64,000 bases of DNA from Hemileia vastatrix (lineage: Eukaryota > Basidiomycota > Pucciniomycetes > Pucciniales > Zaghouaniaceae): assembly GCA_030280995.1 (NCBI GenBank), contig JASXTE010000014.1:310001-374000 (forward strand). The letters run 5' to 3'. The number at the start of each line of letters is the position of its first letter. Within the stretch, counting starts at the first letter, position 1. Below, piece after piece: positions 7,648 through 47,603 of this stretch. Position numbers and translations under genes: made by a program. The notes under the pieces were generated by a model. That model saw only the letters and a list, made by a program, of their open reading frames with translations, was not told the origin of the DNA and searched no databases.

Positions 7648-7651
7648 TTTC

Positions 7652-16761: not shown

Positions 16762-16916
16762 GATCTGGGGTGAGAAAAGATGATGGAAAGGGATAGGAGT
16801 TGATTTTTTGTCAGTGATGGGTAGATGATGAAGTGAAGGTGGAAGTTCAGCAGGTTGGCTGTAGAGGTGTTCTGTATGAAATTGGCTGCGTCTATTATAT
16901 GCAAAATTCCATCAGT

Positions 16917-17375: not shown

Positions 17376-17436
17376 GAGGGTTGTTTGTGTTTACATTAAT
17401 AGAGGGTGTGGTTAATTTTTATTTTCTGAATCAAAC

Positions 17437-18077: not shown

Positions 18078-18115
18078 GGTGTTTTGATGAAGAAAGAATG
18101 TGGAAATTCTTAATT

Positions 18116-18125
18116 GAAGGGAGAA
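18116..18125 (+). promoter_or_regulatory. Polypurine tract of element B
   Basis: GAAGGGAGAA lies immediately before the 3' LTR start TGTGG at 18126, the expected place for plus-strand DNA priming. Confidence 0.75.
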
Positions 18126-21727: not shown

Positions 21728-21777
21728 ACACCACGCAATATTTGGGGGGGACTTGCTAGCAAGTCCTCAACTTGAAG
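21728..21777. mobile_element. Left terminus of the CACCACG-type element
   Basis: It reads ACACCACGCAATATTT, then seven G and ACTTGCTAGCAAGTCC, and is the inverted match of 720 and 47603. Subterminal short repeats (GAACTCAGACT twice, AACTGATACTC) lie at about 21785-21825, as expected for transposase-binding repeats of this superfamily. Confidence 0.85.
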
Positions 21778-21825
21778 TCAGATGGAACTCAGACTGAACT
21801 CAGACTGAACTGATACTCAAATGAG

Positions 21826-22776
21826 ACTGAAATTGGCTTGACATTATCCTGAACTCTGTGCCAATACTCAATGGACTTCTGTGAAAGTATAATGAATGTC
21901 TGAATAGAGAATTGCATGATATTTTGTGCTTGAAACAAGTAAAAGTTGAATGATTTTTTTAAGATGATTAGTCAAAATTGAAAGCCATCCTTTTAGACTG
22001 AATTATAATGTTCAGCTTTAAAATATAGGAGACTGATAATGTAGTCTTTTTAGTATTATTTGGCTTCTCTCATTTTAAGGATATAATCATTTTTTTCAAA
22101 TTGATAATACATAATGAGTGGCTTGGTTATTCAAGATTATTTTGGGATTTTCAGAAGTCTTTGGATCTCTTAAAACCTACCTTTTTTTTAATCAACACAT
22201 TTTTGTCATATATTATCTGACAAAACAAATAATGTAAGAAAGATATCTAAAAATTTTACTCAAAGTGTAATTTCATGTGAAATTTTCACTACTCTTATAA
22301 CATACATTGGTTCCTTGTAGAAAAATCATTGAACTTCATTTTAACTAAAAGAATCTGTATGTACATAATTTTTTTTGAAGAAGATACTTATCAATATTTT
22401 GATTTATGGTATGGGTTCAGTTAAAAACCTATTCAAGGTAACCATAAATTGACTTCAAAATTCTGACAAAAATTATTGTGTTATTATATACAATTTACTG
22501 ATCATTTCCATGCAGTCACTGGGCTCCTGGAAAACATGATCTGAATATTCATTCAATATTTCTAAGTATTGATTAATTGGATTGTGTAACTTCTAAACCA
22601 TTTATATTCATTTTTGCTCCTTCTCATATCTCCACAAAATGAGTTCCTTGTAACGTCTAGGTCAATTAATTGTTTCATTTGAACCAACACCATCATATAT
22701 GATATTACAATTATCAAAAAACCAAATGGAAAAGGCAATGCTTCAGTGAGGTAGAAAAAGAGTTCATATTCTTTCT
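21826..22776. other. Non-coding left arm of the element
   Basis: AT-rich, no convincing open frame and no strong repeat. It probably holds the promoter of the SNF2 gene starting at 22777. Confidence 0.5.
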
Positions 22777-25086
22777 ATGTTAGACACAAAGACTCTTAAA
22801 ATTATTGGAGATCTTTCAGAAAAGCAAAGTGAACAAATTGGACCGCTTCTTGGAGAAATTGGCGACTGTTCTCATTGGCTGAACTTTGAATCTGGGATGC
22901 AACCACAGCATAAATCCTATTTTCAGAGCTACATAGTCAAACAGCAAAATGAAACATTGCAGCTGTGGTGCACTTTATCTGGAATCAAAAGGCATCTTAA
23001 TGAAATAAAACAAAAATTTTATCTTGCTGGAATAAGTATACTTGAAATTGATGATTACAACAGCAAAACATTTTAAAATATTGCTTCTTATTGGTCAGAA
23101 GTTGACTCATTTAGGATTGGACAAAATTCAATAAATCAAACTCAAATACTAGGAATAAAAACGGCATTCAAAAGGCACCAACTTCAAGAAGTCAACTTTA
23201 TGATTGACAACGAAAAATTTATAAAAGATAAACTGGATAAGCTTTGGGAGCATGATGATAATAATTGGCTTCACAGTGTGTACCATCCTCGAAAACAAAA
23301 TTATGAAAATATTGGACGACACTTTGGTGGATATGGGTCAATACTTGCAGATGACATGGGTTTAGGAAAAATGCTATCAACACTTGCTCTGATAAGTGCA
23401 ACACAAGAGCAAGCAATAAAATTTCAACAAAGATTGGAGCTTTTTGGTAAAAAACTAAGTTTTGCCACACTAATTATATGCCCATTATCTGTACTCTCAA
23501 ACTGGGAAAATGAAATAAATCTTCATTTCAACCCTCGATCTCTTCCATACCATGTATTTCATGGTCAGATTTGGATAATTTACAAGAAGAAAAGCTCCAG
23601 CGAACTGCAATTGTACTTACCACTTATGAAACAGTCAGCCCTTCGACAATAACTAAGCAAATGGAAGAAAAGTTATCACTGATAAGTAGCATTATATGGT
23701 ATCGAATTGTTCTGGATGAATCACAGTAAGTTATATCTGTAACTTGACACAAAAAATGATGTTAGGAGATTTAACAAGAAACAATAATTTATTATAGCTA
23801 CATCAAAAATCCTCTAGCCAAAAGGACACAGAAGAGTTTTGGTTTACTTTCCAAGCATCAACTATGTTTGACAGGAACAGCATTACAAAACTCACCAGAA
23901 GATCCGCAGAGTTTAATCACTTTTCTTCAATTGGATGGATGGGATGAGGAGTCTCTTTGGAGAGAACAAATTACACCGAAACTGAATGTTGGTTCACTGC
24001 AGGAAGTCAAAACTATCAACCACCTTATGAAGGTAGTCTGCTTACGGAGAACGAAGGATGTTGTGCTTAATCTCCCTAAAAAGGTTGAAGAAGGTATATT
24101 AGTGAGATTTGGAATACACTGGCAAAAAAGACTGGACAAACTACAGGAAGAATTTTACAAGCAATTTGGTCCAAATTGTGATCAAAAACAAACTTGGGAT
24201 AATAGTGAATTTCTACAGCAACTAAAGGTTTTACAACTATTTTGCAACCATCCAATGTATGAATTTAGAAAAGATGAACGGCCTGATAGGTATACATGGA
24301 GTGATTCGGCTAAGATGTTACATCTCATTGAGCATGTGATGGAGATGGTGCAAGGGCAAAGAGGCATAAAGGAGCCCAAAGCAGTCATCTTTTCAGAATA
24401 TGTGGACTTTTTAGAAATGTAAGTGACTAACTTAAAACTTTTTGATGAAGGAAAATTAAAGGAGTGATTATTTTCAAAAGGATTTTAAAAGCCCTAAAAG
24501 AGTATAAAATTGGCTTTACAATGTATGTAGGTGATTTGAGTCGGAGGGCCTGAGATGAAAGTCTAAACAGGTTTAAAACGATATCAATTGCTTTGTTCTT
24601 CTTGGCTCCATTAAGTCAGCAGGGATAGGTATTGATTTAAAATGTGCACAAAATGTTTACATAATGGTATTTTAGCATATAATTTTCACTAAATACAAGA
24701 AATTCAACTGGGAACACTTATTAATTGAATGTTTTATTATTGTGAATTTGTGCAGGATCCAAGCTGGAATCCATCAATAGAATCCCAAGCTATTGATCGG
24801 CTTTTTCAAATGGGTCAAAAAAACAAGGTCCATGTCATTAAATATTTTGTGAGAAAGAGTATTGAATTCAGTATGTACAACATTCAAAAAAAATAAGAAG
24901 TTAACTATGTATGTAAAATAATTTTTTTATTGATGAAAAAATGAAAACTAAATATTTAAATTTTTATTTTCAAGGCTCAGTGTACCAAATAGTGGAGATG
25001 AACCATTTCAGCTTAAAAAGATGGTTCTTGATGAATATCTGAATGAGTTGAAGAAGTTGGAGCAGTCAGTTGAAGAAGATTATTGA
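22777..25086 (+). pseudogene. SNF2 helicase, Rad5/HLTF-like, lightly degraded
   Basis: Start ATG at 22777 (MLDTKTLK). SNF2 motifs appear in order: I, GSILADDMGLGKMLST (usual GLGKT has Met for Thr); Ia, TLIICPLSVLSNWE; VLTTYET and II, LDESH (a DEAH-type box); III, LTGTALQNS; LRRTKDVVLNLPKK; IV, VIFSEYVDFLEM; V, GSIKSAGIGIDLKCAQ; VI, IESQAIDRLFQMGQ. Introns with good GT-AG and phase: 23726-23797, 24419-24480, 24667-24755 and one from 24871. Lesions: TAA near 23074, indel near 23565, TGA near 24550, indel near 24566, uncertain last-exon frame. I see no RING finger between motifs III and IV, unlike Rad5. It would use ATP to move along or remodel DNA or chromatin. It lies just inside the TIR and points toward the transposase. 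Confidence 0.88.
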
Positions 25087-25144
25087 TGTTTATTGGGTTG
25101 GAAATTTTCAACATTCATTTTTCTTGATTATTGAGAGTAGCTAA

Positions 25145-26090
25145 ATAATTATTATCATAGCAGTCAAGAGGTAAAGATCGAGGTACTGATTCCTGTCAAA
25201 GACTAGAAGGTGGTAATGATACAGAATGTATCCTTTGTATTGAAACAAGATCTTTTAGTGGCAATGATGATGTTTTTGATTTTTGACTCATTTCATGGGA
25301 CTTAAGATCGATATTTTGTGCTAGAATTGAAAATTCATCTGATCTACATGATAGTGATACTTTACTTATTGACACATCTTCATTTATTTCTGAGTCAGAG
25401 CATCATTTGACATTAGTAAACAAATCTTTTGCTGTTGAACATATAGGAAGGGTCTTGAGAAAGTTTTTACGATGAACAGAGAGCTTCAAGAGATTATCAG
25501 CAAAGAACTCAAAAAAATATGAAAGATGTTAGACTAACTTTTTTATGTAACCTAGACCGAGACATTTGAGATATTTTTTTCTCCAAATGGTCTGGAGAAT
25601 AGTGTCCAAGGAACCATAAATGGAGAACACCCATTTGATTAGTAAAGGAAATTGTGTTTGGATTGATAGGGTATGAAGCAAAAGCCATCATTCAGAAAGC
25701 ATTGTCCCAATGTTTGATAATAAGTTGAGCAAAACACTGATTCCAGTGAGAGTGTCATTCCAGATTCCAAGCAAAATTATGACCTGAAAAGTTTGATGAT
25801 TCAAGATCATTGAGAAAGGAATTGTTTCTGTCACAACACTAGAGCCTGAAGCTAAACAAATCTGTACAGGGGATGAAATAGATTCATGTGTAATTAATGA
25901 CCATTTAAAAATCTGGTGATTTGTAGGAAAGAGTTTCCAAGATGTTGAAGTAGGAGATATTTGCATAAGAGTTCTACAGAGACTATGGATGCAGCGACAA
26001 AAAGGAGAATCAGAAGGAGGAAGTATTTCAGAAAATATTTTATTTATTTGACAATAGTCTCTGGGAGGTTTTCCATCAGGAAAGTAAGAC
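25145..26090 (-). pseudogene. Unrecognised minus-strand gene remnant
   Basis: From about 26085 to 25540 the minus strand has one frame interrupted only by a TGA near 25687. It reads ILPPSDSPFCRCIHSLCRTL, then a segment with LASGSSVVTETIPFS and LGIWNDTLTGISVLLN. Past the stop the frame continues LIKWVFSIYGSLDTILQ and IWRKKYLKCLGLGYI. A further serine-rich open stretch reaches about 25150. Base use is less AT-extreme than the surroundings. It converges on the end of the SNF2 gene. I do not recognise a family; the length of open frame in AT-rich DNA is the only argument that it was a gene. Confidence 0.4.
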
Positions 26091-29000
26091 TAATAATCAG
26101 GCATAATTTATAAAGAATTATGTATAATAAATGCTACAGTATGGAGGGGAGTCTAAGAGCGGAAATTATCTATCTTATATGATAGCTTAAACAGTGACAT
26201 GAAGATATTACAAAGAGGTTGCTAAAAACAACGAATATACACTCAGGAATAAGCCATAAAAACAATAGATCAAAAGGAATATCAATTAAAAAACTGAGTG
26301 TATTACATGAGATGAGTACTCATACATCTGAGGAAAGCATGGTTATCAAAGGAGTTTACTGAGAAAAAAAATATTGATCATTTTAATATGTAGCAGTAAT
26401 GAGCATTCCCTGAAAGGGAAGTATAAAAACAAACAACATTAAGTAAATATAATTTACAAAATGACATTTTTCTGAAATAAATAATATTCTTTGTCTAAAA
26501 AATTCCACTCATAATTAAGATAGCAATTGAACAACCGGATGATAAAGAGATATCAAATATGCATGTACAAAAAATATACTTGAAAAGAGTTAGTTGACAT
26601 TGTTTACATGAATTTTTTTAAAAAGACAAGGGCTTTATCTTTGCAAAAGGTGGGTAATTGAAAGATGTTTATAGGAATATTTCTGAATTAATGCTTCTGA
26701 ATGAACCAAAAAAAACATCAGGCTATTAATTGCAATTGTCAAACCTAATGCAAGAGGTGAATTTTATCATTCACCCATAAAATAGTGCTTAAAAAAGAAT
26801 ATTCATAAAAAATTTAAATGATATCTAGAGGGTAATTTCTCTATATACTAATTCTAGATCTGGATGGAACTAGTTCCTATGATGAAAATGATAATTCTGT
26901 TGTAGAATTAGAAGACCATTATTTTAGTAATGGAAAAGTAAATAAAGTCAATTATGTAGCATTTGTTCAATTTTTTATTCCCACAGACCTAAAAAACATA
27001 AAGTTAGTCACCTCACATGATGCCCCAAATCAATGAGGTGTACTCTATTTTTCAGCCGTTGTGGTAGCCTAAAGTTTAGTATGGCACCTAAGTACGTAAA
27101 TGGAATTATTAAAGCATGCAAGATTAGTGCTATCATTTTTTATAAAAGGGTTTTATTTAATTTATTTGAGTTTTAAATATGAAGAAATTGGTCAAGAGCA
27201 AATGCCTACGCAAAAACAATTTATTTTAAGGAGAAAACTTATTTTGCGGTCTGAAAAGTTTATAAGTATCAAGTAGAGTCACTCAAGAACCTTGGGAAAT
27301 TTTCCCAGAATTTTTACTATTTTTCTTATATTTTTAAATGAATTTTAAAGTTTTATAGAAATATTTACGTTTTTAGAAATTACTTAACTTTCATGAATTT
27401 TCAAGGGTTGATTAGAGATGAGCAGACTACGAAAATTAGTTTGGAATGTAGAAGGGAAGTAGCACTATCATGTGTAATTTTTCTAGATTTTTTATTAAAG
27501 TGTTAAAGGTTCTAATTGAGTCCGGAGGTCCGGACGGACTCCATTTGGACTCCGTTTGGACTCCGTACAGACTCCGGAATGACTCTGGGTGAGCTCTGGA
27601 GGGGAAAACTTAGGCACATGACTAGGTATACTCAAGAGCCTCTCAGACTCGAAATTGGGGGGAATCTTACAATCATCAGGATCATACAGCTTAATCTTTA
27701 ACCACCACGGTCTCATTTTTTATTACTCAACAAATTAAATAAATTTGTAATACCCTTATAACTTTTTATCTTATATATAACATTTTAGAAAGACTACTCA
27801 ACAATTTAAATCACACTTCATACAGGGTATCTTTAGAAAGATCTTCATCACTGGGACTTGATTATTGCTGTCTCATAAAAATTCAAATTATTATAAAAAC
27901 ATAAAAGTCAATCTTTTCAGATCTTTCACTGGTACACCTTAATTGTTGTTATCAGTATTTCTTTTCTCAACAGCCACATTCTTTAAATCTCATAGGCGTT
28001 AAATATTTTAGAGTTTCATTATTTTTATCAATCAGATTTAAGTAGACTGGTTAGCTTAGTGATTTAGAATTCCCATTTTGTTATTTTTATTGGAAGGACA
28101 GGGTTTTTAGCTAAATCCACACATCTCCTCCGGATTCTGTTTACAGCAAGGCGACTGTAAGAGTTTACCTTACCATACCCTAAAATAGAGTTTCCACCCA
28201 AGAATTGGAAGGAAAACTCATAAGATAAAAAAAAGTTATTATTGATAAATGTAAGTAATATCTCATAATGGAACTATTTTATATAATTTCATCAATAATG
28301 TCAATATTATAATGAGTTTCAAAATACATTAATTTACAGTTGTTTTAGAGGTTGAGCAAAATTTAATCACTAATACCAACTCAAAAAATATGGGTTAACT
28401 CATATCAGCTGCTTCCTCCCATAAATTTCATCAATATATTTTCAGTAGGTGAGATGCAAGAAAAATTGAATATATTTGAAAAAAGGAGATAAGAGTAAAA
28501 TGGGTAAAGGGATAAAATATATACAATAAATTAGGAACAAAAAAGATTTGTGTTATTTTTCTTATATTATTAGTTTCAATATTCTATTACAAAAGGAATA
28601 TACATCCTTGAAATGATTTTTTCAATGATAATCATTATTATGTGATGGATTGATTATTCATTGAAACCTGTGCAAAACTAAAAATCTATGATTTTGGTAC
28701 CATTTTAAGATATTAATATTTCTATAAATGATAATTCAATAAATTATTATAATAAATAAAATTATCTAACCATTATAAATTAAGATTAATAACAACAGAT
28801 ATTAAATAGTTTTGTTTTCATGGTAGAGATAGATGAATCCTTTCTAGTACTTAGAGGTGAAAATTTATTTTTTGATTAATCTCTTGATAAAAGTACATTC
28901 AAAAATGGGAATAAATTGGATAGTTTACTCTAATTTTTTTGCATAAAATTTGTATTTATATTTGCAAGTATGCGAATGCAAATAATAATTATTTAGAAAA

Positions 29001-29092
29001 TCTAGGACAAACAATTTAGTTTCAACTTTGGTTTTTGAAATTGCCCTCCCAAACTTCAAATTCATTTTCCCAATTCTGAATATCCCTCATCA
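26091..29092. other. Non-coding stretch with two small repeat relics
   Basis: No gene supported. At 27520-27600 a GC-richer patch repeats GGACTCCG-like words about every 15-20 bp. At 28093-28170 a relic resembles the end of the LTR at 50430 (shared GATTCTG ... CAG ... GGCGACTGTAAGAGT pattern). The rest is AT-rich without visible structure. Confidence 0.5.
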
Positions 29093-32000
29093 ATGCCATT
29101 TCAGTCGAAAATTTGTGAATGTACAACATTAGGTTGTGCATTCAAGGTTCATCTAACGCCACTTGGAACCTACCGAAAAGGAGTTATATATAAAACTTCA
29201 AAGTCTCACAAGAATAATCAAACCAAATGTGCAAAGAAAATTAATACAGACTGTATTAAAGATTCTATGTTGGAGGGAAATTCTGGCAGTTTATCTCAGG
29301 TATTTTCATTTTTTAAAATTGAAAAAGGTTATATGTGGAGAGAATGTTTAGATAATAAAATCTAAAACATTTATTTTTTAGTTACTGAATTCTTTAACTC
29401 CAAAGTTAACTGGCACTATTCTTGGCCAGTGTAGCATGGTAGCTGAGGAGAAGTATAGTTGATCAGTAATGTTACAGGCAGCAAATCTTTATTCATCGAA
29501 TAAACTCAGCTTAAGAGGATGTGAATCTTTCCTAAAAAACCAAATAAAATATTTGAAAATTCTTGGTTATGATCGCTCATTGAATGTTGATGGAATTGTT
29601 AAAAAAATTCCCCAGTCACTTGAAATGGTATTTCGTTGTCTTAAACTCAACCCGACACTTGTCACCAGGACATGCTGTGCTAAATTTTTTGCTCTTTATG
29701 AATTTTATCTGGATGATCATTGTTATATTAAAACATGCACTCAAGTATTCATGTCATCATTGAAAAAATATGTGAAACAGTTACCAGAAAAAGAAAAGTT
29801 TCTGCAGTGTAATGAAGATCTTTACACTAAATCTTACAAAGAAAAAAATCATTTACAAGCCAAAAAAAATATTTCTATATAAAGTGTCTGTTGATTGGAT
29901 TTCGATGAAACTGAAGCAGAAAGATTTTGATGAAGGGACTCAAAAGTGAAAATCTTTTAGAAGATCATATTTTAATGTAATGGATGACATCTGGGAAGGG
30001 GGATATTTGGAAGAATTTCCCTGAAGATTCAAATGCTTCAAAGGATGGCTATTTTGCTTTTGCTTCCACTACTGGCAATTTGGTGTTCAGCTTATATGTG
30101 GACTGGTTCCGGCCTGGAGGTAATTGGATTGGAAGTCATCAGAAATCAGTTGGGTTGATTATGCTTATTTGTATGAGCTTACCACCATCTGAACGATATT
30201 GCAAAGAAATTTTATTTCTATGCTTGATAATACCAGGTCGAAATGAGCCAACGAGTGAACAATTTTACCATCTTTTGAAGCCTTTAGTTGATGAATTCAA
30301 AGTACTTGGGAAGGCATATGGGTCAGCTCCACACATTCTCATCCAGAAGGTGAAAAAGTCTGAGCTGCAATCTTTCCATTAATTGCAGATATTCCAGCAC
30401 TTCGGAAAGTAGCAGGCTATGTTGGCCACTCAGCAACACAATTTTGTTCTTTCTGTTTATTATAAATTAATGAAAATGATGAGTAAAATGTGAATAAATT
30501 TCCTTGTCAGACCCATGAAGAACACATGAAACATGCAAAAGAATGGAAAAATGCAACAACACATTGGGAACAAGAAAAAATTGTTTTAGAGCATGGTGTC
30601 CGCTGGAGTGCTTTGAATGAATTGAGATACTGAAGACCGATAGAACATTGTGCTTTGGATATGATGCATTGCCATATGCTGGGTAATCTTAAGGATCACA
30701 GCAGGATGTTTTTACGAATTGAAGATTCAGCAATCAACCTTGAAAGGAAGTTGAAGAAGGCAGAGAATTGGAATATTAAAGATTTGGATGATTCAGTTTA
30801 TCCAGAGAAAGATGTATGAAGTTCTGGAAAGCGGCAGTATGAATCTGATCAAGAAAATAAGCTGGAATTCTTGTCATCCAGGAGTGGTAGTATGCAACCT
30901 TTAACTGAGTCAAATCATATAATGATAGCAAGTGAAAAGGGTGTTAATGTAAGGAAGCGTCAAAAAACCGATAATTATTTCCTCAGATTACAATCTCAGT
31001 CAAACTCTTCAAGCATCTTTTTTGATAACTCAAGTGGTATCCCAGTTAGTTCATGTTATAATTTGCGGAGTGGAACTAAAGGCGAATCATCAAAAATAGC
31101 TAGTGAAGACTCTTCTGAGGGGTCCCACTTGACAGCTAAGGGAAATGAAAATGCTTTGAGTAAAGAAGTAGAAGATTCTGCAGACTTTTTAGACCCTAGA
31201 TTGACGGGAGATGAATTGCTAGTGGTAAGGAAGGTTATTCAGCAGAAAATAACTCCTTCTTGGTTTACACAGGTACTATAAAAATTGGGATCAAAAACTG
31301 GAGGTTCACTAAAGGCAGCTGAGTGGCATGTACTGTATACTGTCTACTATCCACTTGCATTTATACCACCTTGGTTTCAGCAAAGTTCATCACAGGGATG
31401 CTCATCAGGCTTAGAATTACGGTCCAGAGAATCAATACTACTAAAATCATTGACGACTTTGATTTCGATTACGAACTTTCTAACCCTGAAGAAAATATCA
31501 AAAGATGAGGTGAAAGATTTAGAAAACCTTCTTTTTGAATACCGTAAATGTCTTCAGAGTGGATGGAAACATCAAAGGATAAAGCCAAACCTCCACCTAA
31601 CTCAGCATTTCCCTGATGTGATAAAACGATTTGGGACACCTGCTTATACTGCCACATTGGCAGCTGAAAGAATAAATGGCAAACTTTCAAGTATTTCAAA
31701 TAATCATCATCCTTGTATATCAAAAAAAAATTTTCATTGAAGATTTAACAATTATAAATATCATATTTGTATGTAAGATGAGATACCAAAAACGATTCTC
31801 AAGTATTGGCATGTCAAGACAGTTCTAATGCAGTATGAAAAGGAAGAAAACATGGAGCTAAACAAAGATGAAAAAATGACGAAAGATTTGGATAGTGTGA
31901 AAGATTTTATTACACTGGATGAAGCAATTTTTCAAAAATGGGCAAAAGAACCAATTGGAAAAGATAGTTTAAGATGGCAGTTGTCATTGTCAGAGATCAA

Positions 32001-32409
32001 AGTTGCAAGAGAGGTACAAGTACTCAGATGCTTTGTGCTAAAAGGAAAACAATTTATGACAAAATCTAAGCATGAAGGTAACTCAACAATTGAATTCAAA
32101 TATTGTGATGATTGGAGGTTTGGTCAGATTGATATGTTATTCACATCAAAAGAGGACAAGGGAGAGGTTTGGGCTATTGTTAGTCTTTTCAAAGAAATCC
32201 TGCCTATCAAAACACACAAGGATCCATATGAGAATCATACTCTTCTAAATAGCAGAGTACTCAAGGATTCTAAGGCTGCTGCTATTGTTGTAAGTGAAAA
32301 GTCAATAATAGGACATGCAGCTATCCTGAAACATCAGCAAGGAACTTTTGGTAGGAATGAAAAGATTATCACGGCTGTTGGGTTGAGGTCCATTGTAAGT
32401 CAAAACTAA
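29093..32409 (+). pseudogene. Tnp2-like (CACTA superfamily) transposase
   Basis: ATG at 29093 (MPFQSKICEC) opens a cysteine-bearing N-terminus (CECTTLGC, later H and C). A 92-bp intron (29300-29391) is in phase. Hallmarks of fungal Tnp2 transposases follow: LVFSLYVDWFRPGGN (first Asp, near 30099), EQFYHLLKPLVDE, PALRKVAGY...SATQFCSFC, HGVRWSALNELRYWRP, ALDMMHCHMLGNLKDH (second Asp, near 30659), PSWFTQV, KPNLHLTQHFPDVIKRFG, and AAERINGKLSSI (Glu, near 31667). So D, D and E are all recognisable. The tail (31828-32409) matches the C-terminal domain often seen on this family. Lesions: stops near 29460, 29979, 30391, 30465 and 30633, plus several frameshifts. It would cut and rejoin the TIR ends; this copy is non-functional as read. 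Confidence 0.88.
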
Positions 32410-32939
32410 TTATTCTGAATAGAAGCAGTTTAAGTTAATTTTGATCTTTGGCATTTGAAAGGAGTGGTAATGCGAGCAAAGTGATGAATGGCACAATTTT
32501 GGGTGGAGAATGGGAGAATAAAGATTTTTTTGATTGAGCAATGCCTTAACAACGTGATATAAAAAAATAGTTGCATAATTCCAAAAATAACTCAGAATTA
32601 TGAGATATCAAACATGAATTTGGTAGTAATTCGACAGAGATAAAAAATTTAGAAAAAGTAATAAGTAAGGTGGGAAGTATAAATAATACTCATTTCAGTT
32701 TAGGAAGGCAATTTTCAAGCCCGATTCCAAAACTCTTTATAAATATTTCTCTGATTAATTAACAACACTTTTAAACAAATTATTGTAAAGGAATAAAATA
32801 TGGACAAAGATTTTGATATGAGTAAGACATTGTTATCTACTAAATCATTCTGCCAAGTGAATAATTTGATATTTCTAATTTGACTTCAATTTCACAAAAA
32901 ATAGGTCAATTTTTAAATTCTATTATTGATAATGGAACT

Positions 32940-34488
32940 ATGGATATGGATGTGGAATACGAGACTCCAAATCCAGAAGCCAAGGATGGTAACAGTAACC
33001 CCCACGCTGGTCCTTCTACATCTACATCTAACGGCTAAAGGCAGAAAAAAACTCCACATCAAAATCGAGAGGAACAGACGAATCACAATGGGGCTGCTAA
33101 GAATTCTGAATTCATTGCCGGGTTACTGAATGATTTCCTGCCCAAGAATACTGAAAAAAATCCAGATGAACCTGAATTTTCTAGTTGAGTACTTGAAAAT
33201 ATTTTGATAAATTCAAATGTACTTTTAATGACTGATTTAATTTTTTTCCCTGTTTTGTAGCCACTTTTGATCCAAAGCTACAAAATAATATTACAGAGCA
33301 AAAAAGGAAAGCGGCTGAGAGAAGAAAAGCAGAGGGTCGTCAAGAAAAAGTCATAAAATCCATCTAAAAAGCAAGAAATGCACCCAGAAGTTCTGAAACA
33401 ATCAGCCAAAATATTCATCACTTCTTAAGAGTGTGCCTGGGTGGCCCGACACAGCTGAATCACTATCCAGAAAGCCCAACTGAAGAGGAGGTTAAAAATT
33501 AGCTTAATTGGACTCAGAACAAAAAGAATATACTTCGACAGGAAATTGAAAAGGTTTTCTCAATTCATCAGCCAAAAACTGCTGCTGATAAAAACTATTT
33601 AGCTAGAACTGCAGCTGCTCACATTGGAGCAAAAATTGGTTTGCCTGCTTTTCAGCCTATGAGTGATTTATTGAACATTCCTGGTGGTCCTCCTGTCCCA
33701 ATCACATTGAAGAAAAATCTTGAGCGGGATTTACAAGAAAAAGGATTCCCAAGACTTACTTTTGAATGGTCATGCAAATCATTTTTAGGAACAGTCTGGA
33801 ATCAAGTAGTATCCGCAATTTTGGCAGAATTTTCACTGACTTGGCTTAAGACGGTGAATTGGGTGGACTCAGATAAATTCAAATTTATTTCCATTGTCAT
33901 TGAACAGTGGGTTTTAAATAAAGGAAAAGAGTTGAGGAAGTATAAAGGAAGAAAAGATACTTCTCTTGCGGATATAAATAAGATAAACCACTCCAAGGCA
34001 CAAGTGCAAAGACACCAAAAAAAATTGAGAATTTCCCCTATTCTTTCAGAATAAAAGCTACTTACAAGATATGATTTTTTTTAACATTTTAGATAGCTGA
34101 AACACTTTGGACTATATCGGGTATTTACTGCCATGGAAATGAAGATTTTATTGCCCTCTTTCTGACAACTGAATGCACATCAGATATTGAGGAAGAAAAA
34201 TAGTCTACAAAGCCACCCATACGTTTAATACCTGCATGGAGAAGCCAACAACTCACTGAGTGTATCCATTTACTTGATAAAGTAGCATTTTTTTTAGAAA
34301 CAAATCAAAGGGCTCTTCTCCAGTATAAAAAGACATATGAGCGCTCTTCTGAGAAACAATCTTCAAAAAATGGTATAATTGGTGTTCCCCAAAATTTACC
34401 AAAAAAATTTTACTCAAGTGATTTTTTAAGTAGTCTAAATAAGATTAAAAGTGATATTCTTGCAGCTAAAGATGAAGTTGATTTATAA
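32940..34488 (+). pseudogene. Accessory gene next to the Tnp2 transposase
   Basis: ATG at 32940 (MDMDVEYETPNPEAKDGNS). A probable intron from 33183 to about 33261 joins to TFDPKLQNNI and a strongly charged coiled-coil-like stretch (KRKAAERRKAEGRQEK). The middle (SPTEEEVKN ... QQIEKV-like ... GLPAFQPM ... RLTFEWSCKSFLG) and a lysine/arginine-rich segment lead to a C-terminus with PAWRSQQLTECIHLLDKVA and LPKKFYSSDFLSSL. From memory, this P-x-W-R-S ... LP-x-x-F-Y-S/D-x-x-F/W ending recurs in basidiomycete hypothetical proteins; that link should be verified. In-frame stops occur near 33052, 33366, 33502 and 34203, and a short intron or break near 34055-34092. The role is unknown; a partner of the transposase is an inference from position. 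Confidence 0.6.
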
Positions 34489-35824: not shown

Positions 35825-38207
35825 ATGTCAGACTCAAGTTCCAAGCTATCATCAGTCCCACATTTAGGTTCTAAGGAAAATGAAACACCATCACCAGGTT
35901 AGTAATAAGTCAGTGATAAAAAAACTATTTATGTGAAAGCTTACTTTTCATTTTGTATGTAGATGCTTGAGCAATAAAAGAAAATTTCAATGAGACTTCC
36001 ACTTTTGAAAAATTTTCACTCCAATCAAACAATCCATTACAATCAAAATCTAGGGAGCCAGCACTTCAGTCAGAAATTATTGAGATTATGGCTGAAGAAT
36101 ACTATGAAAAACTCAACATGAAGGAGGAGCAAGCAGCATCTTTTGTTTGGGAGTTGGAAGAAATGAGAGTTCACAAGGCATATGTGGACTCAGCATCATC
36201 GTTTCTTAACCTTGTTAAACATCAAAAAAATGTGAGTAATTTCATACTTTAATTGTCATTGAATCTAAAACATTATTATTTATAATTATTAGCATATCTG
36301 GATACTAAGAAAGTTCCCGAAGATTCTCATATTAAGGTCAAGGAGGCACAAGAGTCAGAATTGGATAGTGCTTCAAGAAATGTAAACAAGAGGTTGGAGA
36401 ATACTCATCAGACAAAAAGAGCATGTACCTCATTAAGCTCCTCATTGGTTTCAGAATATTCTTCATCTCCTACTCCTGATGGAGAAGAAGAATCCGAAAG
36501 ACAAGAAGACCCAATGTTATCAAGTAATTTGTAAGTTTAATTTTAATCATACAACTTTCATGAGATATACTGATATCCCTTCTCATAAACTATTGTTGTG
36601 CAAATTAACTTTAGGAAAAATGATCAAGGTGAATCTGCAGCAGGTAAAAGATGAATATAATATCATAGCTGATAATTTAATATTTATTTTGTGAAACTGA
36701 CACTTTTCTTTTTATAATATTTACGCAGACATAGATGCAAAAAATTCACAAAATAAAAAAGAAACACCAATCATTTCCAGTGACAGTCACAACAGAGAGA
36801 TATCAGCTGCAGCTGAAGAAACGACTGCAAGGGATGATGTGGTACCACATTCTCAAACGGAACCATTAAGTATGTGTTTTTAATATTTTTATTCAAAAAA
36901 AAATGTGGCTAAATTTTTAACATTTCTGTAGTATCTTCTGCATCAAAAGAGCTGTCCTTGTTGAAAGATATGGATTTAAAATCAGATATCAAAGAACTTT
37001 ATTATTTTTTTTGAAGGAAAACTCAGCTGGCAAAAGGTGAACAAGGCATGGAATGCAATCACATTCTTTCTGAATTTTTGAGGAAGGGAGAAGATTTTAA
37101 CAGCGTCATTTGATGCATTCTTGTTTCATTTCACCCAAGGCACTCATGCAGAATGGGTTAAAGTCATCAATGAATTGGATAATTTCTTCACTATTGAAAA
37201 TATAATTTTTGTATTAATTAGCTTTATGACTCTTATTGTAGGCCCTCAATTTTTGGATTTAAATGAATCTACGCAACCATGGTACTTGACTAATCAAATT
37301 GACTTTTCAAAACTTGCCAAGTTCAATGCAAAATCATTGAATGAAACTTATGGGGACTTGTGCAAAAAGAAGACATCAAATCCAGAAAACCACCTGTTTC
37401 GTATGCTTAGTCCATGTCAATTTGTCAGCCCACATTCTCAACAGTACTGGTCGACACTGATTGCCTCGTCTCTAGAGTTAATGGCAAACAAAACACATCA
37501 AGCACCTCCACCTGAAATGATTGAGAATGATGATCCGGTAACACAAAGTCTTCTATTAATTAATCATATTGACAAACTTATGAACAAGACTCCACCAATT
37601 TCAAGTTCAGCAAGTGAGATGAAGAAGTACAAAGCCATGACCAACTCAATGACGCCGCTTTTACAATTTCAAAATGCCTTATCCAACTGTTTGAAGTCAT
37701 ACTTGACATTGTATGCAAGACCACAGGCGAAACCAAAAACAGCTTCAGAAAAGCAGAAATGAAAAGAAAAAGATGGTGGACAATTGATTCAGTCTGGATC
37801 CAACAATGAAGAAGAAAGGTCACTGATTCAGATTGAAAAAGCACAGCAAATCACAACTTTCAACCTTTTATTATGTATTTAATAGATGGGGTAAGGGGTT
37901 TATTTGTATGTTCGCATGATTATAGATTTTCAAGTATCAGTGATTGTTTAGCATTTATAAGTCAGGATGATTGTATTCACAAAAAAATTAATTGCACATT
38001 TAATTCAGAAGAACGTTTATGGAAGAATCTCAATAGTTACATCATAGGTCTTTTTTACAAAATCGTCAAAATCCAGAGAATACAAAAGACTTCTGTATGC
38101 CATCACATTTAGAAATAGCTCAAGAAATAACTGCTGATTTTTTGGATCATTTGAAAATAGTACAACCTGATACATATTTTTTTCAAACTCCAAGTATTAA
38201 AGAGTAA
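35825..38207 (+). pseudogene. Unrecognised serine-rich multi-exon gene
   Basis: ATG at 35825 (MSDSSSKLSSVPHLGSKEN). Several short exons appear, separated by AT-rich, AG-ended gaps. These include a glutamate-rich helix (EEYYEKLNMKEEQAASF) near 36090-36150, a Ser/Glu-rich stretch (TSLSSSLVSEYSSSPTPDG) near 36430-36480, and another near 36725-36868. The longest exon, about 37121-37762, reads GTHAEWVKVINELDNFF ... PQFLDLNESTQPWYL ... SPCQFVSPHSQQYWSTLI. After an in-frame TGA the frame continues charged, and an end near 38207 (TADFLDHLKIVQPD) is plausible. I recognise no domain. Its exon-like structure and orientation match the transposase and accessory gene. Exon borders are approximate. Confidence 0.45.
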
Positions 38208-38839
38208 ATATTGATTATATTTATATAAATAGATTCTATACTTGGTATAATATTGATTTAAATAGCTACAATAATATGAATCATTCAAAATAATTATTAA
38301 AAATTAAAAATTAAAAAAATTTGGAAATAAGAAATATGCAAGAATTATGTAAAATGTGCAATAATAATAATACATGGATTAAAAATGAATGTGAATAATA
38401 ATAAATATGAGGTATGCAAATAAAGTGTGGAAATATGGAGAAATAAGAATTATAAACAACTTTAAAAAATAAAATGACAGTTATAAATGTATTTAATGAG
38501 TATAAACTGTTAGAAAAGAAGAATAGGTAATAGAAAAAACATCAACAATTAAATATGAAGTAAAGAATCATAAAAAATGTAAAAACTCTTAAGTTGAATG
38601 ATTAAATGATATATTCATTCATAGAAAGAAAGCAGCAGTGTTATACCTGATAATAATAGAAGTATACAAAGGCAAGGAATAATGAATATAATATACTCAT
38701 CAAAAATATAATTAGATGAGGAATAGGAAAAGAATAATTTGAACACATTCAAATTAAAATGGTGTACTCTAACCTATAGTGGTAGTTAAGGGTAATCCGA
38801 ATTTATATTCCAAAAAAGATTGAAATAGAAGCCAAAAAA
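38208..38839. other. AT-rich spacer, no gene seen
   Basis: Very AT-rich, with short direct echoes of AAATAATAATA type. Nothing else supported. Confidence 0.5.
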
Positions 38840-38845
38840 CACAAG

Positions 38846-40732
38846 TGTACCCTGATCTTAGTGCGAAGACCAGGGTAAACTTCTCAAAATCTCTGATACA
38901 ATTTTTATCAAGGCCAATATACAATGGTGGACTCTGATGTTTGGCCAAAGATGAAGGTCCACCTCTTCAAATATCACTGAACACATGGTTGCAGGCAAAA
39001 ATACCATGGTGTACCCTGATCTTCGGCTGAAGATCAGGGTACACGTCTTAAAATTTAAAGAAATATTTGAATAGGAGAAAAAACATATGTACCCTGATCT
39101 TTGTGTGCAAATCAGGGTACACATCTTCAATTTTCACAAACAATGTGTAGAAAGGCAAAAATACAATGGATGACTCTGATGAAGGTGTTAGAACAAGGGT
39201 CATTTATTTTAAAAATTCATGCACAATTTGAATACAGGCAAAAACAAAAGGTGAACCCAGATCTTTGCACCAAGATCAGGGTACACATCATCAATTTTCA
39301 TGTAGTTTTTGAATAACAGCAAAAAAACACAAGTGTACCCTGATCTTTGCACAAAGATCAGGGTTCACTTTTCAAAATCGCACATACAGTTTAGTCCAGG
39401 TAAAAAATACAAAGGTGGACTCTTATCTTCGCGCAAAGATCAGGGTACACATCATCAATTTTCCTTTAATTTTTGAATAACAGCAAAAAAACACAAGTGT
39501 ACCCTGATCTTTGCGCGACGATCAGTGTACACTTCTCAAAATCTCTGATACAATATTAGCCAAGGCCAATATAAAATGGTGGACTCTAATCTTCTTCCAG
39601 AGAAGAAGGTCTACCTCTCTGAACACATAGTTTCAGGAAAAAATACCATAGTGGACCCTGCTCTTCAGGCAAAAATCTGTGTACACCTCTAAATTTATTT
39701 CATATTATTTCAAATCATGCAAAAATACAATGAAGGAATTTGATGTTCCCCTGCAGATAAGATTTTCCTTGAAAGATTTTTAAGTGAAGTTTAAATATCC
39801 TTTCAAAAACCACATGTAAATCTTGACCTGTACAGATTAATCATGGTTGATTTGTTATAATTTATACATGAACAAAATAAATTCAAATTCTAACAATCAA
39901 AGACTATATATCATATTATTTTATATTTGCTAAAATAACAGTGTTCATCTTTGAATTCGGAATAGTTGACCTTTATTGTTTGCTTTAGATGGATGCCCAT
40001 CTGTGGTTTTTACTCCTAATCATATGTTGTTGAAATTTGAAGAGGTGTACCCTGATCTTTGCGCAAAGATCAGGGTACACTTGTGTTTTTTGCTGTTATT
40101 CGAAAAGTATATGAAAATTGATGATGTGTACCCTGATCTTTGGGCGAAGATCAGAGTCCACCTTTGTATTTTTTACCTGGACTAAATTTTATTTGTTATT
40201 TTGACAAGTGAACCCTGATCTTTGTGCAAAGATCAGGGTACACTTGTGTTTTTTTGCTGTTATTCAAAAACTACATGAAAATTGATGATGTGTACCCTGA
40301 TCTTTGCGCAAAGATCAGGGTTCACCTTTAATTTTTGCTTGTATTAAAATTGTGAATGAATTTTTATAATAAATTACTCTAGTTCTAACACCTTCATCAG
40401 AGTCATCCATTGTATTTTTGCCTTTCTACACATTGTGCGTGAAAATTGAAGATGTGTACCCTGATTTTCACACAAAGATCAGGGTACATATGCTTTTTCT
40501 CCTATTAAAATATTTCTTGAAATTTGAAGACATGTACCCTAATCTTTGGCCGAAGATCAGGGTACACCATGGTATTTTTGCCTGCAACCATGTGTTCAGT
40601 GATATTTAAAAAGGTGGACCTTCATCTTCGGCCAAACATCAGAGTCCACCATTGTATATTGGCCTTGATAAAAATTGTATCAGAGATTTTGAGAAGTGTA
40701 CCCTGGTCTTCACGCGAAGATCAGGGTACACA
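38846..40732. repeat. Large inverted repeat of nested palindromes
   Basis: The left arm, about 38846-39540, and the right arm, about 40042-40732, are inverted copies of each other, with nine matched modules in mirrored order. Each module is a 32-36 bp palindrome of the type GTACCCTGATCTTTGC and its complement, followed by a module-specific spacer of about 45 bp; the spacers also pair across the two arms. Palindromes start near 38846, 38930, 39009, 39088, 39170 (decayed), 39250, 39333, 39414 and 39497 on the left. On the right they start near 40046, 40126, 40205, 40290, 40390 (decayed), 40453, 40530, 40611 and 40696. Two extra modules sit inside the loop (39580, 39651) and two beyond the right arm (40792, 40873). 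Open frames containing PDLCAKIRVH are translations of the palindrome. Confidence 0.93.
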
Positions 40733-41460
40733 TGAGTGGGTTTACCACTATATTTTTTCCTTTCAACAGACTGTTCTTAAAAATTGAAAAGGTGTACCTT
40801 GATCTAAAAGCAAAGATCAGCGTAAACATGTGTATTTTTGCTTCAATTCAAAATGTTTATGAAATTTTTAGAGGTGTACCTTGACCAACAGCCGTTAATC
40901 AGTATCTTTCCTGTTATTTTTACCCACTTAAATGGCCCTATCCTTTAATCACATCATTATAAATATTTTCTTAATAATCACATCTATATTAATATTGAAC
41001 ATCCTTCAACATCCTTGAAAATTTATTCATCATTTATAATTCCTTGATAATATTTTCTTTGTATCTCCTTATTTGATCATCTTCATATTTATTTTACCAT
41101 GTACTTTAACATCTACATAATATTCTATTATATTCTCAAGTTTTATGTTACTGTGCTTGTGCTATCTATGTCATTCTTATTGGCTTCACTATCAACTACA
41201 TATCTCTCCTTCAGTCTCAGTACATCAATATACATTGTTAACAAAACCCTTTTACATATGATTACTCCCTTTTTGTAAACTCTACTATCTATCACTATAC
41301 TGCTTTTCTTAATTTAGTGGAACCTCCTTATTCAATTTCTTTCTGGTGCTCTCACATAGATTCTTATATACACATACCTCTATAACCTTTTTTTATAATA
41401 TTCTTTACCCTCATTTTGTTCCTTCAACCCACAGCCATCACTTTACTCTACCTTTTCACA
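40733..41460. other. Spacer between palindrome array and Tet-like gene
   Basis: It contains the outermost decayed palindromes (40792-40900), then T/C-rich DNA without a gene. Confidence 0.55.
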
Positions 41461-42689
41461 CTACGTTTCCAAAGTTTCAGAACCTACAAATGATATACTC
41501 AGTATCTTCATCTTTTAAAAAAATGCTTAATATTATTTTTATTTAATATTTTTCTTACCATCTCTTTTCTTCTTAAGAGAATTATCAACACTTTTCTGAA
41601 AAGTTATGAGTTTTTCATGATCCTTATCCGGCAGATTTTTGTTTTGTAGTGTCATTCTAATTTTTTCTTTTAATAATTTTAGCTTTGTCGTTTTGTCTTT
41701 TGTTGAAATTTACTGTGGAACGTCTAATCCTAGAAGAGAAAAAATTTCTCATCCATTGAATAGCTTCTTGGAAACTTGAATTGATGATCTCAGACATGTG
41801 AACCCTTCTTCCTCATTACATTTTGATGTGTAATGCAGTACTTCATTTGCTTGCCAAAGTATCAACCATAGTCCATCACAGTTTTTGAAGTTTATTTTTG
41901 TCTCCAACTCTGGGAAAATAAACTCTCCTCCTTCTTGTCGTGGTTTATTCTTATTGTATGGGCGCTCATTGAGTTCATTTTTATACGTATTTTCGGGGTA
42001 ACAAATCCCAAATGCATATCAACTCCCATCCCTATCGCAGTGCGGAGTGTTACTGTATCCATTACCATTAATCCCCGTAGTCCATGTCAGATTTCCAAAA
42101 AAAGAGTCCTCTTCCTCTTCCCAACTCAGTATATTTAACTCTTTTGACAATACCCGTGCTTCCTCATGTAACTTCTTGGACAACAACTGGAAGAAAAATC
42201 TATAAAAAATTGATAATCATTTTTTTGCTTGATCTCTTTCAGCTTTTGAAATATTTTTGTTCACATATTTCCCTAATACAGTCTATTAATGTTTAAATAA
42301 TTGGTAAACATGAAAAAATGCTTACTTAAATCAAGAGGAATCAAGCATCCCATCAAAATTCCATCAGCAAACATTACTCCACTTTCTTGTGGTCCATTAC
42401 ATGAGACCACATGCTCCAAAAGCTGAAGATCTCTCATGGCCTGTCTTGTATTGTCAAGTTTATTTAGCATTTTTAACTGCTCCAATGAAGTCGATGATAT
42501 AATGATTGGTTGTACACCTCTTTTTCTGGGCTGGATGAAGTATGTTCCCTCATTCAGCTGCTTGAAATCTTGTGGGTTTAATGATCCATATTGTGTCTTG
42601 TGTATTGGTTTTACTTTCAATTGTCTACCAAACATCAGATTTCCTTCTATTACACTAATTCCCCCCTCTTCTTCTTCTTTACTTGCCAT
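41461..42689 (-). pseudogene. Tet-like 2OG-Fe(II) oxygenase, three exons, degraded
   Basis: Minus-strand ATG at 42689 (MASKEEEEGG). Exon 1 ends at 42326 with donor GTAAGC; exon 2 runs to 41559; a 75-bp intron (GTAAGA ... TTTGTAG) leads to a short last exon ending TAG at 41461. The double-stranded beta-helix core reads LTWTTGINGNGYSNTPHCDRDG, where PHCD supplies the H-x-D iron ligands (near 42040). After YAFGICYP it continues GGEFIFPELETKINF, then NCDGLWLILWQANEVLHYTS, where LHYT gives the distal His (near 41838). Next comes LRSSIQVSKKLF, as in rust Tet-like proteins. Such enzymes of the TET/JBP group oxidise 5-methylpyrimidines using 2-oxoglutarate and Fe(II). Lesions: TGA near 42017, TGA near 41709, TAA near 41650, and a frame change near 42200. 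The family call rests on motif order; activity is lost in this copy. Confidence 0.75.
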
Positions 42690-42887
42690 AATATTTCTTT
42701 TTCCATTTTTTTTTGGATGTTTTTTCTTTCCTGCCCTTCTCCCTCAATTTTTTCCTTTACCATTTTTTCTCACAAAGTCTTCTTCTTAATCACACATTGG
42801 TTACTCTACTAAAACTTTGATTCATATTTAAATTAATTGTCAGTATATGACTTCTCAATCATTTAAATCACATAAATTAAATTTTTG
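42690..42887. promoter_or_regulatory. Upstream region of the Tet-like gene
   Basis: On the plus strand it is T/C-rich (42700-42790). No specific motif identified. Confidence 0.3.
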
Positions 42888-44640: not shown

Positions 44641-44659
44641 TATTATCTTCAGGGGGATA

Positions 44660-45725
44660 CATCCTGGTGGCTAATTCCTGCCAGCAATCTTGAATGATAT
44701 TCTTTCTGGCAGGTTAAAATGTTAATCTATTTTTCTGACCACTTTCCAGCCATAAATTCAATATTTAGATGTCTGGCAAGCCAGAAATAGGTGCAAGTAC
44801 CTGCCAGCCAGCAATTTGCTTGTTAGCTGACTGGCAGGTTGGGTGAATCAATGATTTGTTTAGCCTCTAATTGCATGCCAGCTAGAAACAAACCAATTTG
44901 CTTTCTGGCTGGCAGGGTAGCAGATTGAGTGGTTGGGGAAATGCATCAATTTCTACTTCCTTTCAGCAGGAAATATGATGCTTAGCTTGCTGGAAAGAAT
45001 GAAGCAAATTGATGCTTTTGTGGAAACCTGAAAATGCCTGCCAGCCTGCTGAAAAGCATATCCCTTTCTAGCTGGCAAGTTGTGATTGCAATTGATCATA
45101 TTTGATCAATTTGCTTGAGCCACTCGCTTGCTTCATGCTAGCAAGTTTAAAAAATATTGAGGGGAAGGAGATAAAAATTTATATTTGAGAAGATGATTTG
45201 CCTTCCAGCCAGCAGAAAATGAATAACTTGCTGGCTGGCAGGTTGATGTAGCACACAGTGGCATTCGATTGATCAATCAATCGATTGATTGATTTATTGA
45301 TTGATTGATCAATTGATCTATTGATTTATTGATTGATCGACTTGAAAGCTGCCTGTCAGCCATCCATACAGACATTTTCTGGCTGTCAGGAAGCCGTCAA
45401 GTTGATTGATAGATTGACTTGAAAGCTAAATCAGCCTACCAGCCAGCTGCGATGTGACTTTGTCGCTGGTTGGAAGGGATGTACAATCGATTTTCTGTCT
45501 ACATGCCAGACAGCTAGGCAGCAAATTTCTGTCTGGCATACAGCAAGCAATTGATTTTTGGGGGTGATTCTTTCCAGAAAAGGGTGGCAAGTGCCTTGAA
45601 AACTTGCACATGCCTACCAGCCAGCTTAAAAGTAATCAGTATTCTGGCTGGCAGGGTCAGGATAAGATATTTTTTTAAGATTCCAGCCAGACAGTGATTA
45701 AAATGACAGCTGTCTGGCAGGCACT
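44660..45725. repeat. Cluster of CTGGCTGGCAGG stem-loops
   Basis: About ten inverted pairs of CCTGCCAGCCAG and CTGGCTGGCAGG variants, each pair separated by about 15-30 bp. Examples begin near 44688, 44770, 44878, 45036, 45200, 45352, 45435, 45505, 45612 and 45684. At 45268-45345 a run of TTGATTGATTGATC-type simple repeat sits inside. No open frame is supported. Confidence 0.85.
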
Positions 45726-47451
45726 AAGTGAGACAGGAGTTAAACAAACTAAATATAAGAATAGAAATGAAGTAAAAAACAAAAAGAGGCAGGAAATGAA
45801 AATGAAAGAGAAATACAGGCCAAAAAATGAGAATGAGAGAGTGAAACGATATAAAAATAATTAAAGAGAGAAAAAAAGAGAGAAACAGTCATTGATGAGC
45901 CACCTAAAAAAAACTTACTAATTAATTATTGACAGGTTCTGTAGGAAGTGATCAGAAGCAAGTCAAGGGGTCAAAGAGTTTGTTGGAGGAAGCGTAGGTA
46001 GTGTGTTTTTGATGAATAATGACGATTTGGGAATGTCAAATTAAGACTCAGTCATAGAAATAAGTGATGGAAAGCAAATAAAATGAGCAAACTTCAGAGA
46101 TGGAGAATATGCAAATTTCAACGTCAAAAAACATTTTGCATGTAAATAAGGGTGATTTTCTGTCAAAAAAAATCCATGCATAATAATTAAATCTTTAAAT
46201 TCAAAAAAAATATTTAATATTTCTTAATTCAATTTTAATCACCTACATTTCAATTTCTAACTATAGTTAGTTGAATGTTTCTGATTTTGTAGAATAGAAT
46301 GTACACTACCAACTCAAAAATGTTTGAACAATGAAAAAAAATTTTTGGAAAGAATGATTTTGTGTAGAATTTATGATAACCATTGGTAAGTCAATGATTA
46401 ACTTCAATTATTTATTTAAATTTTTCCTATATCCGACATATCTTCTTTCAATTTCATACAATTTCAACCAGAATAGGTTATGAATTATATGGAGAATTTA
46501 ATTGTAAATACATGATGGCAGTGGCATTGTAACATAACAAGAAGCAAAAAAAGAAGGCAAACCACAGCATCAAAGATTATTGCATGAGAGGAAAAATATT
46601 TGAAAATCTACCAGATTGAAAAAACAAATACCCCAACTAATGGGGCAGTGGGAGAGTGACAGATAAGACTTATAGTGTCAAAGGGATCTTTAAGCTGTTG
46701 TGCTACTTTCAGAAGGGCACAGAATTGTTTTTGGTGAGAAGGAAAGGGGAGGATGACACATTCTTGATTATTTTTGGTCCATAAGGGGCTTATGAGGAAG
46801 TTTGGAGAAGGTGAAGCATTGAATTGGTTAAGGTACCTTTACAGGAGAATGGCCTGATAAAAATTGAATAAATTCCATAGAATGAGATTAGGATAACCTT
46901 GTCAAAAATTTATAAATGATGGCTGGGTCACAATTTCCCATTAATTTTCAGAGTGGATTAGAATATGGGGGGTTAGGGGTTAGGATATAAAAACATTTTC
47001 AAGTATTATAAAAATATTTTCACTTTTTTCTTGGTTGTTTAAATTTTTGTGCATATTATGTCTCCTGTTAATTATTATTCATTCACCAAAATTTATTCAT
47101 ATTATTTATAATTGTTCCTGTCTATCACTAATCATTTTTGTATATTAGCTATTATAAACTTCTCCTGCTTATTTAATATTGAGAAAAATGATATATTACA
47201 AGAATATTCTGAATGAGAAGATATTATAAGTAAAAATCTTCTTTTATACCTTTATAATAATCATTTTTTAGGGCATCATTGGCTTATTTTCTTTTTTTTT
47301 TTGGTAAACAACATTTATATAGCAATAATCTGAAAAGTTGTAAACCCCAACTTGAAAATTTTATTGGACTGTCTAAAATGAAACTTTGTTTCAATTATTG
47401 AGAATGTGATTTCAACATGTTCTCAACAGATAATCATTTACTCATCAGTGA
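45726..47451. other. Purine-rich then AT-rich DNA, no gene seen
   Basis: 45730-45890 is purine-rich on the plus strand (GAGAGAAA-type). 46640-46860 is less AT-rich and may be a gene relic, but I cannot define a frame. The remainder is AT-rich. Confidence 0.45.
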
Positions 47452-47603
47452 GTGTTCACATGAGCTTCAAGGTGTGTTCAAAGTAAATTCAATACTTCTT
47501 CATGATGGTTTCATCACTTCCTCAATGTGTGCTCAAAAAGATATGAATTAGGGTTCAAGGTTGCGGACTTGCTAGCAAGTCAGCCCCCCATATTGCGTGG
47601 TGT
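47452..47603. mobile_element. Right terminus of the CACCACG-type element, second copy
   Basis: Identical to 569-720 except one base in the terminal palindrome (CAG for CCG). Similarity to the first copy begins abruptly at 47452; nothing upstream matches. It is inserted in a gypsy integrase gene, whose remainder starts at 47604. Confidence 0.9.

What the first reader, a model, noticed from the sequence alone, without database searches (positions are those of the whole stretch)
21728..47603. Transposon-like block coupling a Tnp2 transposase with an SNF2 helicase and a Tet-like DNA oxygenase
Seen: between inverted CACCACG-type ends lie a D-D-E Tnp2-like transposase, a complete set of SNF2 motifs and a 2OG-Fe(II) core with H-x-D and distal His. 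Known: TET/JBP genes are associated with KDZ transposons in mushrooms, and kinetoplastid JBP2 joins a TET/JBP domain to an SNF2 domain in one protein. Inference: here the same two activities travel as separate genes with a CACTA-superfamily transposase, perhaps to remove methylation from, or remodel, the element's own DNA and escape silencing. I do not know a description of this three-part set.
Basis: partly seen in the sequence, partly recalled or inferred. Interest (0 to 1): 0.92.

Follow-up and report, generated by a model that had tools for sequence, protein, structure and literature searches.

The report
Giant transposon carrying TET and SNF2
A 25,000-letter jumping DNA element in a large fungal genome, probably a rust, carries, besides its own transposase, a TET-type DNA-demethylation enzyme and a chromatin-remodelling motor, and has spread recently as one unit, possibly because these genes help it escape silencing.

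Summary
The block is one mobile element, not a chance neighbourhood. Three further copies on one contig are collinear with it end to end (95.6-95.7% to the window copy; two are 99.5% alike), share its CACCACG ends and have perfect 3-bp target duplications. A TET search of the genome listed 45 full-length matches at >=97% identity, 25 of 45 without stops. Of 20 sampled, 17 have both Tnp2 and SNF2 at the collinear places. Of 10 sampled for ends, 8 had both ends in view, all 8 with identical 3-bp duplications. The window copy is old and dead: SNF2, Tnp2 and TET are broken and its flanks do not match. Best explanation: an EnSpm element with its own anti-silencing pair. Moving as a unit is shown; the anti-silencing role is inferred. 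Whether SNF2 or TET genes also lie outside such elements was not settled: the SNF2 and Tnp2 searches did not complete.

The parts
21729..21777 (+). left terminal inverted repeat, CACCACGCAATAT..., with internal 16-bp palindrome GACTTGCTAGCAAGTC at 21750-21765
47554..47602 (-). right terminal inverted repeat, same tip and same palindrome (47566-47581)
22617..25086 (+). SNF2-type ATPase gene (broken here), several exons; borders approximate
   Evidence: Pfam PF00176; in copy C2b PF00176 1.6e-28 and 1.2e-24 and Helicase_C 8.8e-7
25512..26089 (-). possible further gene, minus strand, unknown (217-aa open frame in copies C2a and C2c, 144 aa in C2b)
   Evidence: no Pfam match
27059..28180 (.). insert of about 1.1 kb present in the window copy and absent from copies C2a, C2b and C2c
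29039..32406 (+). Tnp2-type DDE transposase gene (broken here); borders approximate
   Evidence: PF02992 9.1e-8; 1e-14 in copy C2b; D, D, CxxC, HxH and E motifs read by eye
32869..34525 (+). gene 3, unknown; approximate borders
   Evidence: open frames of 272 and 143 aa in copy C2b; one public fragment at 90% over 75% of the query; no Pfam match above cut-off
35768..38109 (+). gene 4, unknown; 431-aa open frame in copies C2a, C2b and C2c; approximate borders
   Evidence: no Pfam match (423 of the 431 residues)
38831..40884 (.). array of 36-bp hairpins, mostly at about 82-bp spacing, in two inverted halves (652-nt arms, 93% complementary) between the convergent gene 4 and TET
41542..42743 (-). 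TET/JBP-like 2OG-Fe(II) dioxygenase gene, PF20515 (broken here)
   Evidence: 1.2e-25 in copy C2b; window row (90% identity, 4 stops)
47452..47602 (.). right subterminal stretch shared at high identity with a short derivative at window 569-719

Best explanation
It is a giant EnSpm/CACTA-type DNA transposon of about 24.8 kb, recently active, that encodes its own Tnp2 transposase plus a TET/JBP-like dioxygenase, a Rad5-like SNF2 ATPase and at least two unknown proteins. Shown: the whole unit is found at many sites as one piece, with 3-bp target duplications, and young copies keep open frames with the catalytic motifs. Inferred: the transposase cuts at the CACCACG ends and also moves short derivatives with the same ends; the TET enzyme oxidises 5-methylcytosine on the element while the SNF2 motor opens or shifts nucleosomes, so that the element's own genes and ends become readable, or so that C-to-T hypermutation is limited. 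The window copy is an old, dead copy.
For: Full collinear copies with duplications AAT/AAT, AAA/AAA, AAT/AAT. Of 10 further copies, 8 show identical 3-bp duplications and in 2 one end was not within the fetched 400 bp. 17 of 20 sampled TET copies have both SNF2 and Tnp2 at the collinear offset. 45 full-length TET matches at >=97%, 25 of 45 without stops (a lower bound). C2b and C2c differ by 0.5% over 24.8 kb yet sit at different sites. In copy C2b Pfam finds PF20515, PF00176, PF02992 and PF00271, and SNF2 motifs I, II, III, V and VI and the H-x-D and distal His of TET are present. CpG is depleted in the element (0.28 of expected) and part of the private changes are C-to-T at CpG (168 of 911 in the window copy, 14 of 44 in C2b; no null expectation computed), as one would expect of methylated DNA.
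Against: No methylation, expression or enzyme data. Of the 20 sampled copies 2 showed other parts of the element at the tested places and 1 showed nothing. Substitutions between copies show no significant excess at third codon positions (28/31/35 for C2a-C2b, p 0.67; 93/113/121 for window-C2b, p 0.15), so selection on the proteins is not shown. The element is itself CpG-depleted, though less than its flanks in the window (0.28 against 0.17, 0.13 and 0.21), so any protection is incomplete. No relative of the TET frame reached E 1e-3 in the one database search, which was limited by length and shared words.
Confidence: 0.62

Rival explanations
1. The SNF2 protein serves transposition itself (access to target DNA, or repair of the gap left by excision, in keeping with its Rad5-like ATPase), while only TET deals with silencing.
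For: Nearest solved structure by sequence to the relative P0006 is RAD5 (3e-22) and to the window piece also RAD5 (2e-6). [quoted passage not shown]
Against: Nothing tested here separates it from the remodelling reading; the two are not exclusive.
Confidence: 0.28
2. TET and SNF2 are passenger genes caught by the element, with no role in its life.
For: No significant codon-position signal of selection between copies. Short elements with the same ends, too short for the genes, have spread well: 60 of 80 end matches examined on C2 (32 in close pairs, 28 of 48 unpaired) belong to elements under 3 kb.
Against: Both genes are kept in 17 of 20 sampled copies, and TET is open in 25 of 45 close copies. 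TET genes are reported from seven lineages of rust transposons (Kojima 2025, abstract), hard to explain by chance capture.
Confidence: 0.1
3. The three genes sit side by side only in this window: two or more elements pieced together by nested insertion.
For: The window copy lacks a target duplication and its two flanks do not look like one site.
Against: Full collinear copies elsewhere with perfect duplications.
Confidence: 0.01

Closest known systems
TET-bearing EnSpm transposons of Pucciniales (Kojima 2025, PMC12730594)
   Same: CAC..GTG ends, 3-bp target duplications, EnSpm/Plavaka-like transposase with a TET/JBP gene; same proposed escape from methylation
TET-bearing KDZ transposons of mushrooms and rusts (Iyer et al. 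2014, recalled; not held)
   Same: DNA transposon with a TET/JBP gene
   Different: transposase here matches Tnp2 (EnSpm type)
Transposons with an SNF2 helicase (Inton and Enton, as named in PMC3627910)
   Same: DNA transposon encoding an SNF2 helicase
   Different: I saw them only in one passage; that passage mentions no TET gene
Kinetoplastid JBP2 (recalled)
   Same: joins a TET/JBP and an SNF2 activity
   Different: one fused protein of the host; here two separate genes on opposite strands of a transposon

Membership tests
EnSpm/CACTA DNA transposons | CAC...GTG termini with inverted repeats | tested here: met
EnSpm/CACTA DNA transposons | 3-bp target-site duplication | tested here: met
   11 of 11 other copies with both ends in view (2 more had one end out of view); not met in the window copy itself
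EnSpm/CACTA DNA transposons | DDE transposase of Tnp2 type with C(2)C and H(3-4)H motifs before the last E | tested here: met
   PF02992 1e-14; motifs read by eye, without an alignment to the family. The C and H motif definition is from Kojima 2025
EnSpm/CACTA DNA transposons | place in a transposase tree | not tested
   no reference set at hand
PU-type TET/JBP dioxygenases | Tet-like 2OG-Fe(II) domain with HxD and distal His | tested here: met
   PF20515 1.2e-25; HCD and distal H read by eye
PU-type TET/JBP dioxygenases | clustering with the published PU set | not testable with these tools
   supplement closed; database search gave no relative at E 1e-3
PU-type TET/JBP dioxygenases | oxidation of 5mC | not testable with these tools
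   needs protein
SNF2 ATPases, Rad5-like | SNF2_N and Helicase_C domains with conserved helicase motifs | tested here: met
   for copy C2b, exon by exon; closest solved structure by sequence RAD5. A RING domain was not looked for beyond Pfam on the pieces
KDZ transposons | KDZ transposase | tested here: not met
   the transposase frame matches Tnp2 above cut-off (and DUF1258 below it), no KDZ model listed
JBP2 | TET/JBP and SNF2 domains in one protein | tested here: not met
   separate genes on opposite strands, about 17 kb apart

The most novel reading that the evidence does not exclude
The element carries a matched two-part anti-silencing kit: a DNA-mark eraser and a chromatin motor that work together on its own nucleosome-covered, methylated DNA, mirroring the host's pairing of DNA methylation with SNF2 remodellers, and this kit drove its recent burst.
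Probability: 0.35. Interest if true: 0.85.

Novelty: new variant of a known kind. Interest (0 to 1): 0.62.

Why it matters
Eukaryotic silencing often pairs DNA methylation with SNF2 remodellers (established knowledge, recalled). A mobile element that carries both an eraser and a remodeller would be a natural test of whether a transposon must defeat chromatin as well as methylation. Because copies range from 99.5% identical with open frames to old and dead within one genome, methylation and age could be compared copy by copy with ordinary long reads.

Tried and rejected
Rejected: chance assembly of neighbours (full collinear copies elsewhere). Rejected: KDZ membership. Considered and dropped: that the altered motif I residue in the window SNF2 is a trait of this family; the three other full copies do not share it, although P0006 from Puccinia triticina has the same letter there.

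Led nowhere: structure models made without an alignment were too poor to search with (mean pLDDT 53.5 and 36.2), so no fold search was run; TET database search empty; viral contigs empty; Rfam and tRNA scans empty; codon-position test not significant. The SNF2 and gene 3 database searches used pieces, so full-length relatives were largely out of range by length. Passages seen but not needed: PMC12210899, PMC13297926.

Counts on contig C2, the only contig listed: of the 100 end matches shown out of 2831, 32 form 16 close pairs (9 of 831 bp, 7 of 887 bp) and 68 are unpaired. Of 48 of the 68, examined over 1.5 kb (8) or 3 kb (40), 3 lead into the long element, 28 face another end at 250-2921 bp, 17 do neither. 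Of the other 20, tested over 0.7 kb, 0 match the element's inside.

Full report
Observation. Its ends match as inverted repeats, 88% over 50 bp, and no other inverted pair in window 20000-50000 reached the script's threshold after pairs inside the hairpin array and low-complexity pairs were set aside. Pfam finds SNF2, Tnp2 and the Tet-like domain PF20515 in separate pieces, with an adjoining PF20515 piece below the curated cut-off.

The window copy is dead. SNF2, Tnp2, TET and two more genes are interrupted by stops or frame breaks, a 1.1 kb insert sits at 27059-28180, and the 3-bp flanks differ (TGA, TAG). The right flank is gypsy sequence related to window 12909-15082 (79.8%), but the left flank aligns to the stretch before that point no better than shuffled sequence. 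So this copy was probably rearranged after it landed. Its divergence from copy C2b is 2.4-3.9% up to about 31.9 kb, then 4.2-7.8%, and 3.2% in the last 0.65 kb, which would suit, but does not prove, recombination between copies.

The genome. The window is part of contig C502 of an unnamed 747.6 Mb genome in 791 contigs. The end pattern occurs 2831 times exactly, 0 times when read backwards. Close pairs of 831 and 887 bp, and further elements of about 250-272, 887-891, 1881-1887 and 2918-2921 bp, show that many ends belong to short derivatives: 60 of the 80 listed ends examined in this way on contig C2.

One unit. Following one end led to a full second copy at C2:239609-264386 (C2a), collinear over its whole length with the window element except for the 1.1 kb insert and small gaps, with duplication AAT/AAT. 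Two more followed: C2:7846983-7871756 (C2b, AAA/AAA) and C2:7955560-7980398 (C2c, AAT/AAT). Identities: window to each of the three 95.6-95.7%; C2a to the other two 98.8%; C2b to C2c 99.5%. A search with the TET frame of C2b reported 151 matches, with 150 of 6061 candidates scored, so a lower bound; of the rows listed, 45 are full length at >=97% identity and 25 of those 45 have no stop. I took the 20 best apart from C2b and C2c and fetched the places where SNF2 and Tnp2 should lie: 17 of 20 have both (16 at the very stretch expected, 1 with the neighbouring stretch of each gene), 2 of 20 show other parts of the element there (gene 3, gene 4), 1 of 20 shows nothing. For 10 of the 20 I fetched both ends: 8 have both ends in view with identical 3-bp flanks, in 2 one end was not found in the 400 bp.

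The genes in younger copies. In copy C2b SNF2 has PF00176 at 1.6e-28 and 1.2e-24 and Helicase_C at 8.8e-7; Tnp2 has PF02992 at 1e-14 and TET has PF20515 at 1.2e-25. Read by eye, TET has HCD and the distal His, SNF2 has motifs I, II, III, V and VI, Tnp2 has its three acids with CxxC and HxH (motif names recalled, except the C and H motifs, which are). Genes 3 and 4 and a minus-strand frame have no Pfam match above cut-off. A fragment 90% identical to gene 3 exists in a public data set. Order: SNF2 (+), minus-strand frame, Tnp2 (+), gene 3 (+), gene 4 (+), hairpin array, TET (-). Not every young copy is whole: C2c has one stop in SNF2, and C2a has stops or breaks in SNF2, Tnp2, gene 3 and TET.

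Function. TET genes of rust transposons are thought to remove silencing marks or counter C-to-T hypermutation (Kojima 2025, part 1 of 2 of the discussion). The element shows CpG depletion, though less than its flanks in the window, and private C-to-T changes at CpG (no null computed), so it has probably been under such pressure. The SNF2 protein is closest to Rad5 among solved structures by sequence. I think it opens chromatin for TET or for the transposase; this is inference. A test for selection between copies was not significant, which is expected of copies that drift after landing but means that function is not proved.

Novelty. EnSpm with TET in rusts is known (three families in P. striiformis and relatives in further species; passage). 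SNF2 in other transposons is known to me from one passage. The listings of my searches for SNF2 with TET, CACTA, EnSpm, KDZ names or rust fungi (one search showed 12 of 104) showed no paper describing the three together; I opened only the papers named in this report, and not in full. Subscription papers and supplements were not covered.

Limits. The genome-wide SNF2 and Tnp2 searches did not complete, so I cannot say how many SNF2 or TET genes lie outside such elements; in roughly 0.2 Mb of other sequence held (48 end loci, window flanks, flanks of three copies) tblastn with the element's frames found none at E 1e-3, a small sample. The 20 copies tested for linkage are the closest TET matches, so older or more distant copies may differ.

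Noticed in passing
window 52476-63006: A second element with related ends (CACCACGGGAAATC...), target duplication TAT/TAT, whose inside is mostly a tandem array of about 606-bp units (53.8-61.7 kb).
   Followed up: partly
window 1-719: Right part of a short derivative of the main element; 99% identical over 723 bp to a copy on C2 (L005); its last 153 bp match the main right end at 99.3%.
   Followed up: partly
window 38831-40884: Large inverted array of 36-bp hairpins between two convergent genes; if transcribed through it would give long double-stranded RNA, a possible source of silencing small RNAs.
   Followed up: no
G000, e.g. C84:15462018-15462728: A second TET group at 41-42% identity, 25 listed matches, none of them with a stop: perhaps another recently spread family, whose carrier was not examined.
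   Followed up: no
window 6555-19218: Long gypsy-type retrotransposon with LTRs of about 1.09 kb, 93.8% alike; not examined further.
   Followed up: no
window 42883-45657: Two further repeat families (CTAAGAGGGGCAATAATGCTC type and CTGCCAGCCAGC type) upstream of TET towards the right end; possible subterminal binding sites.
   Followed up: no
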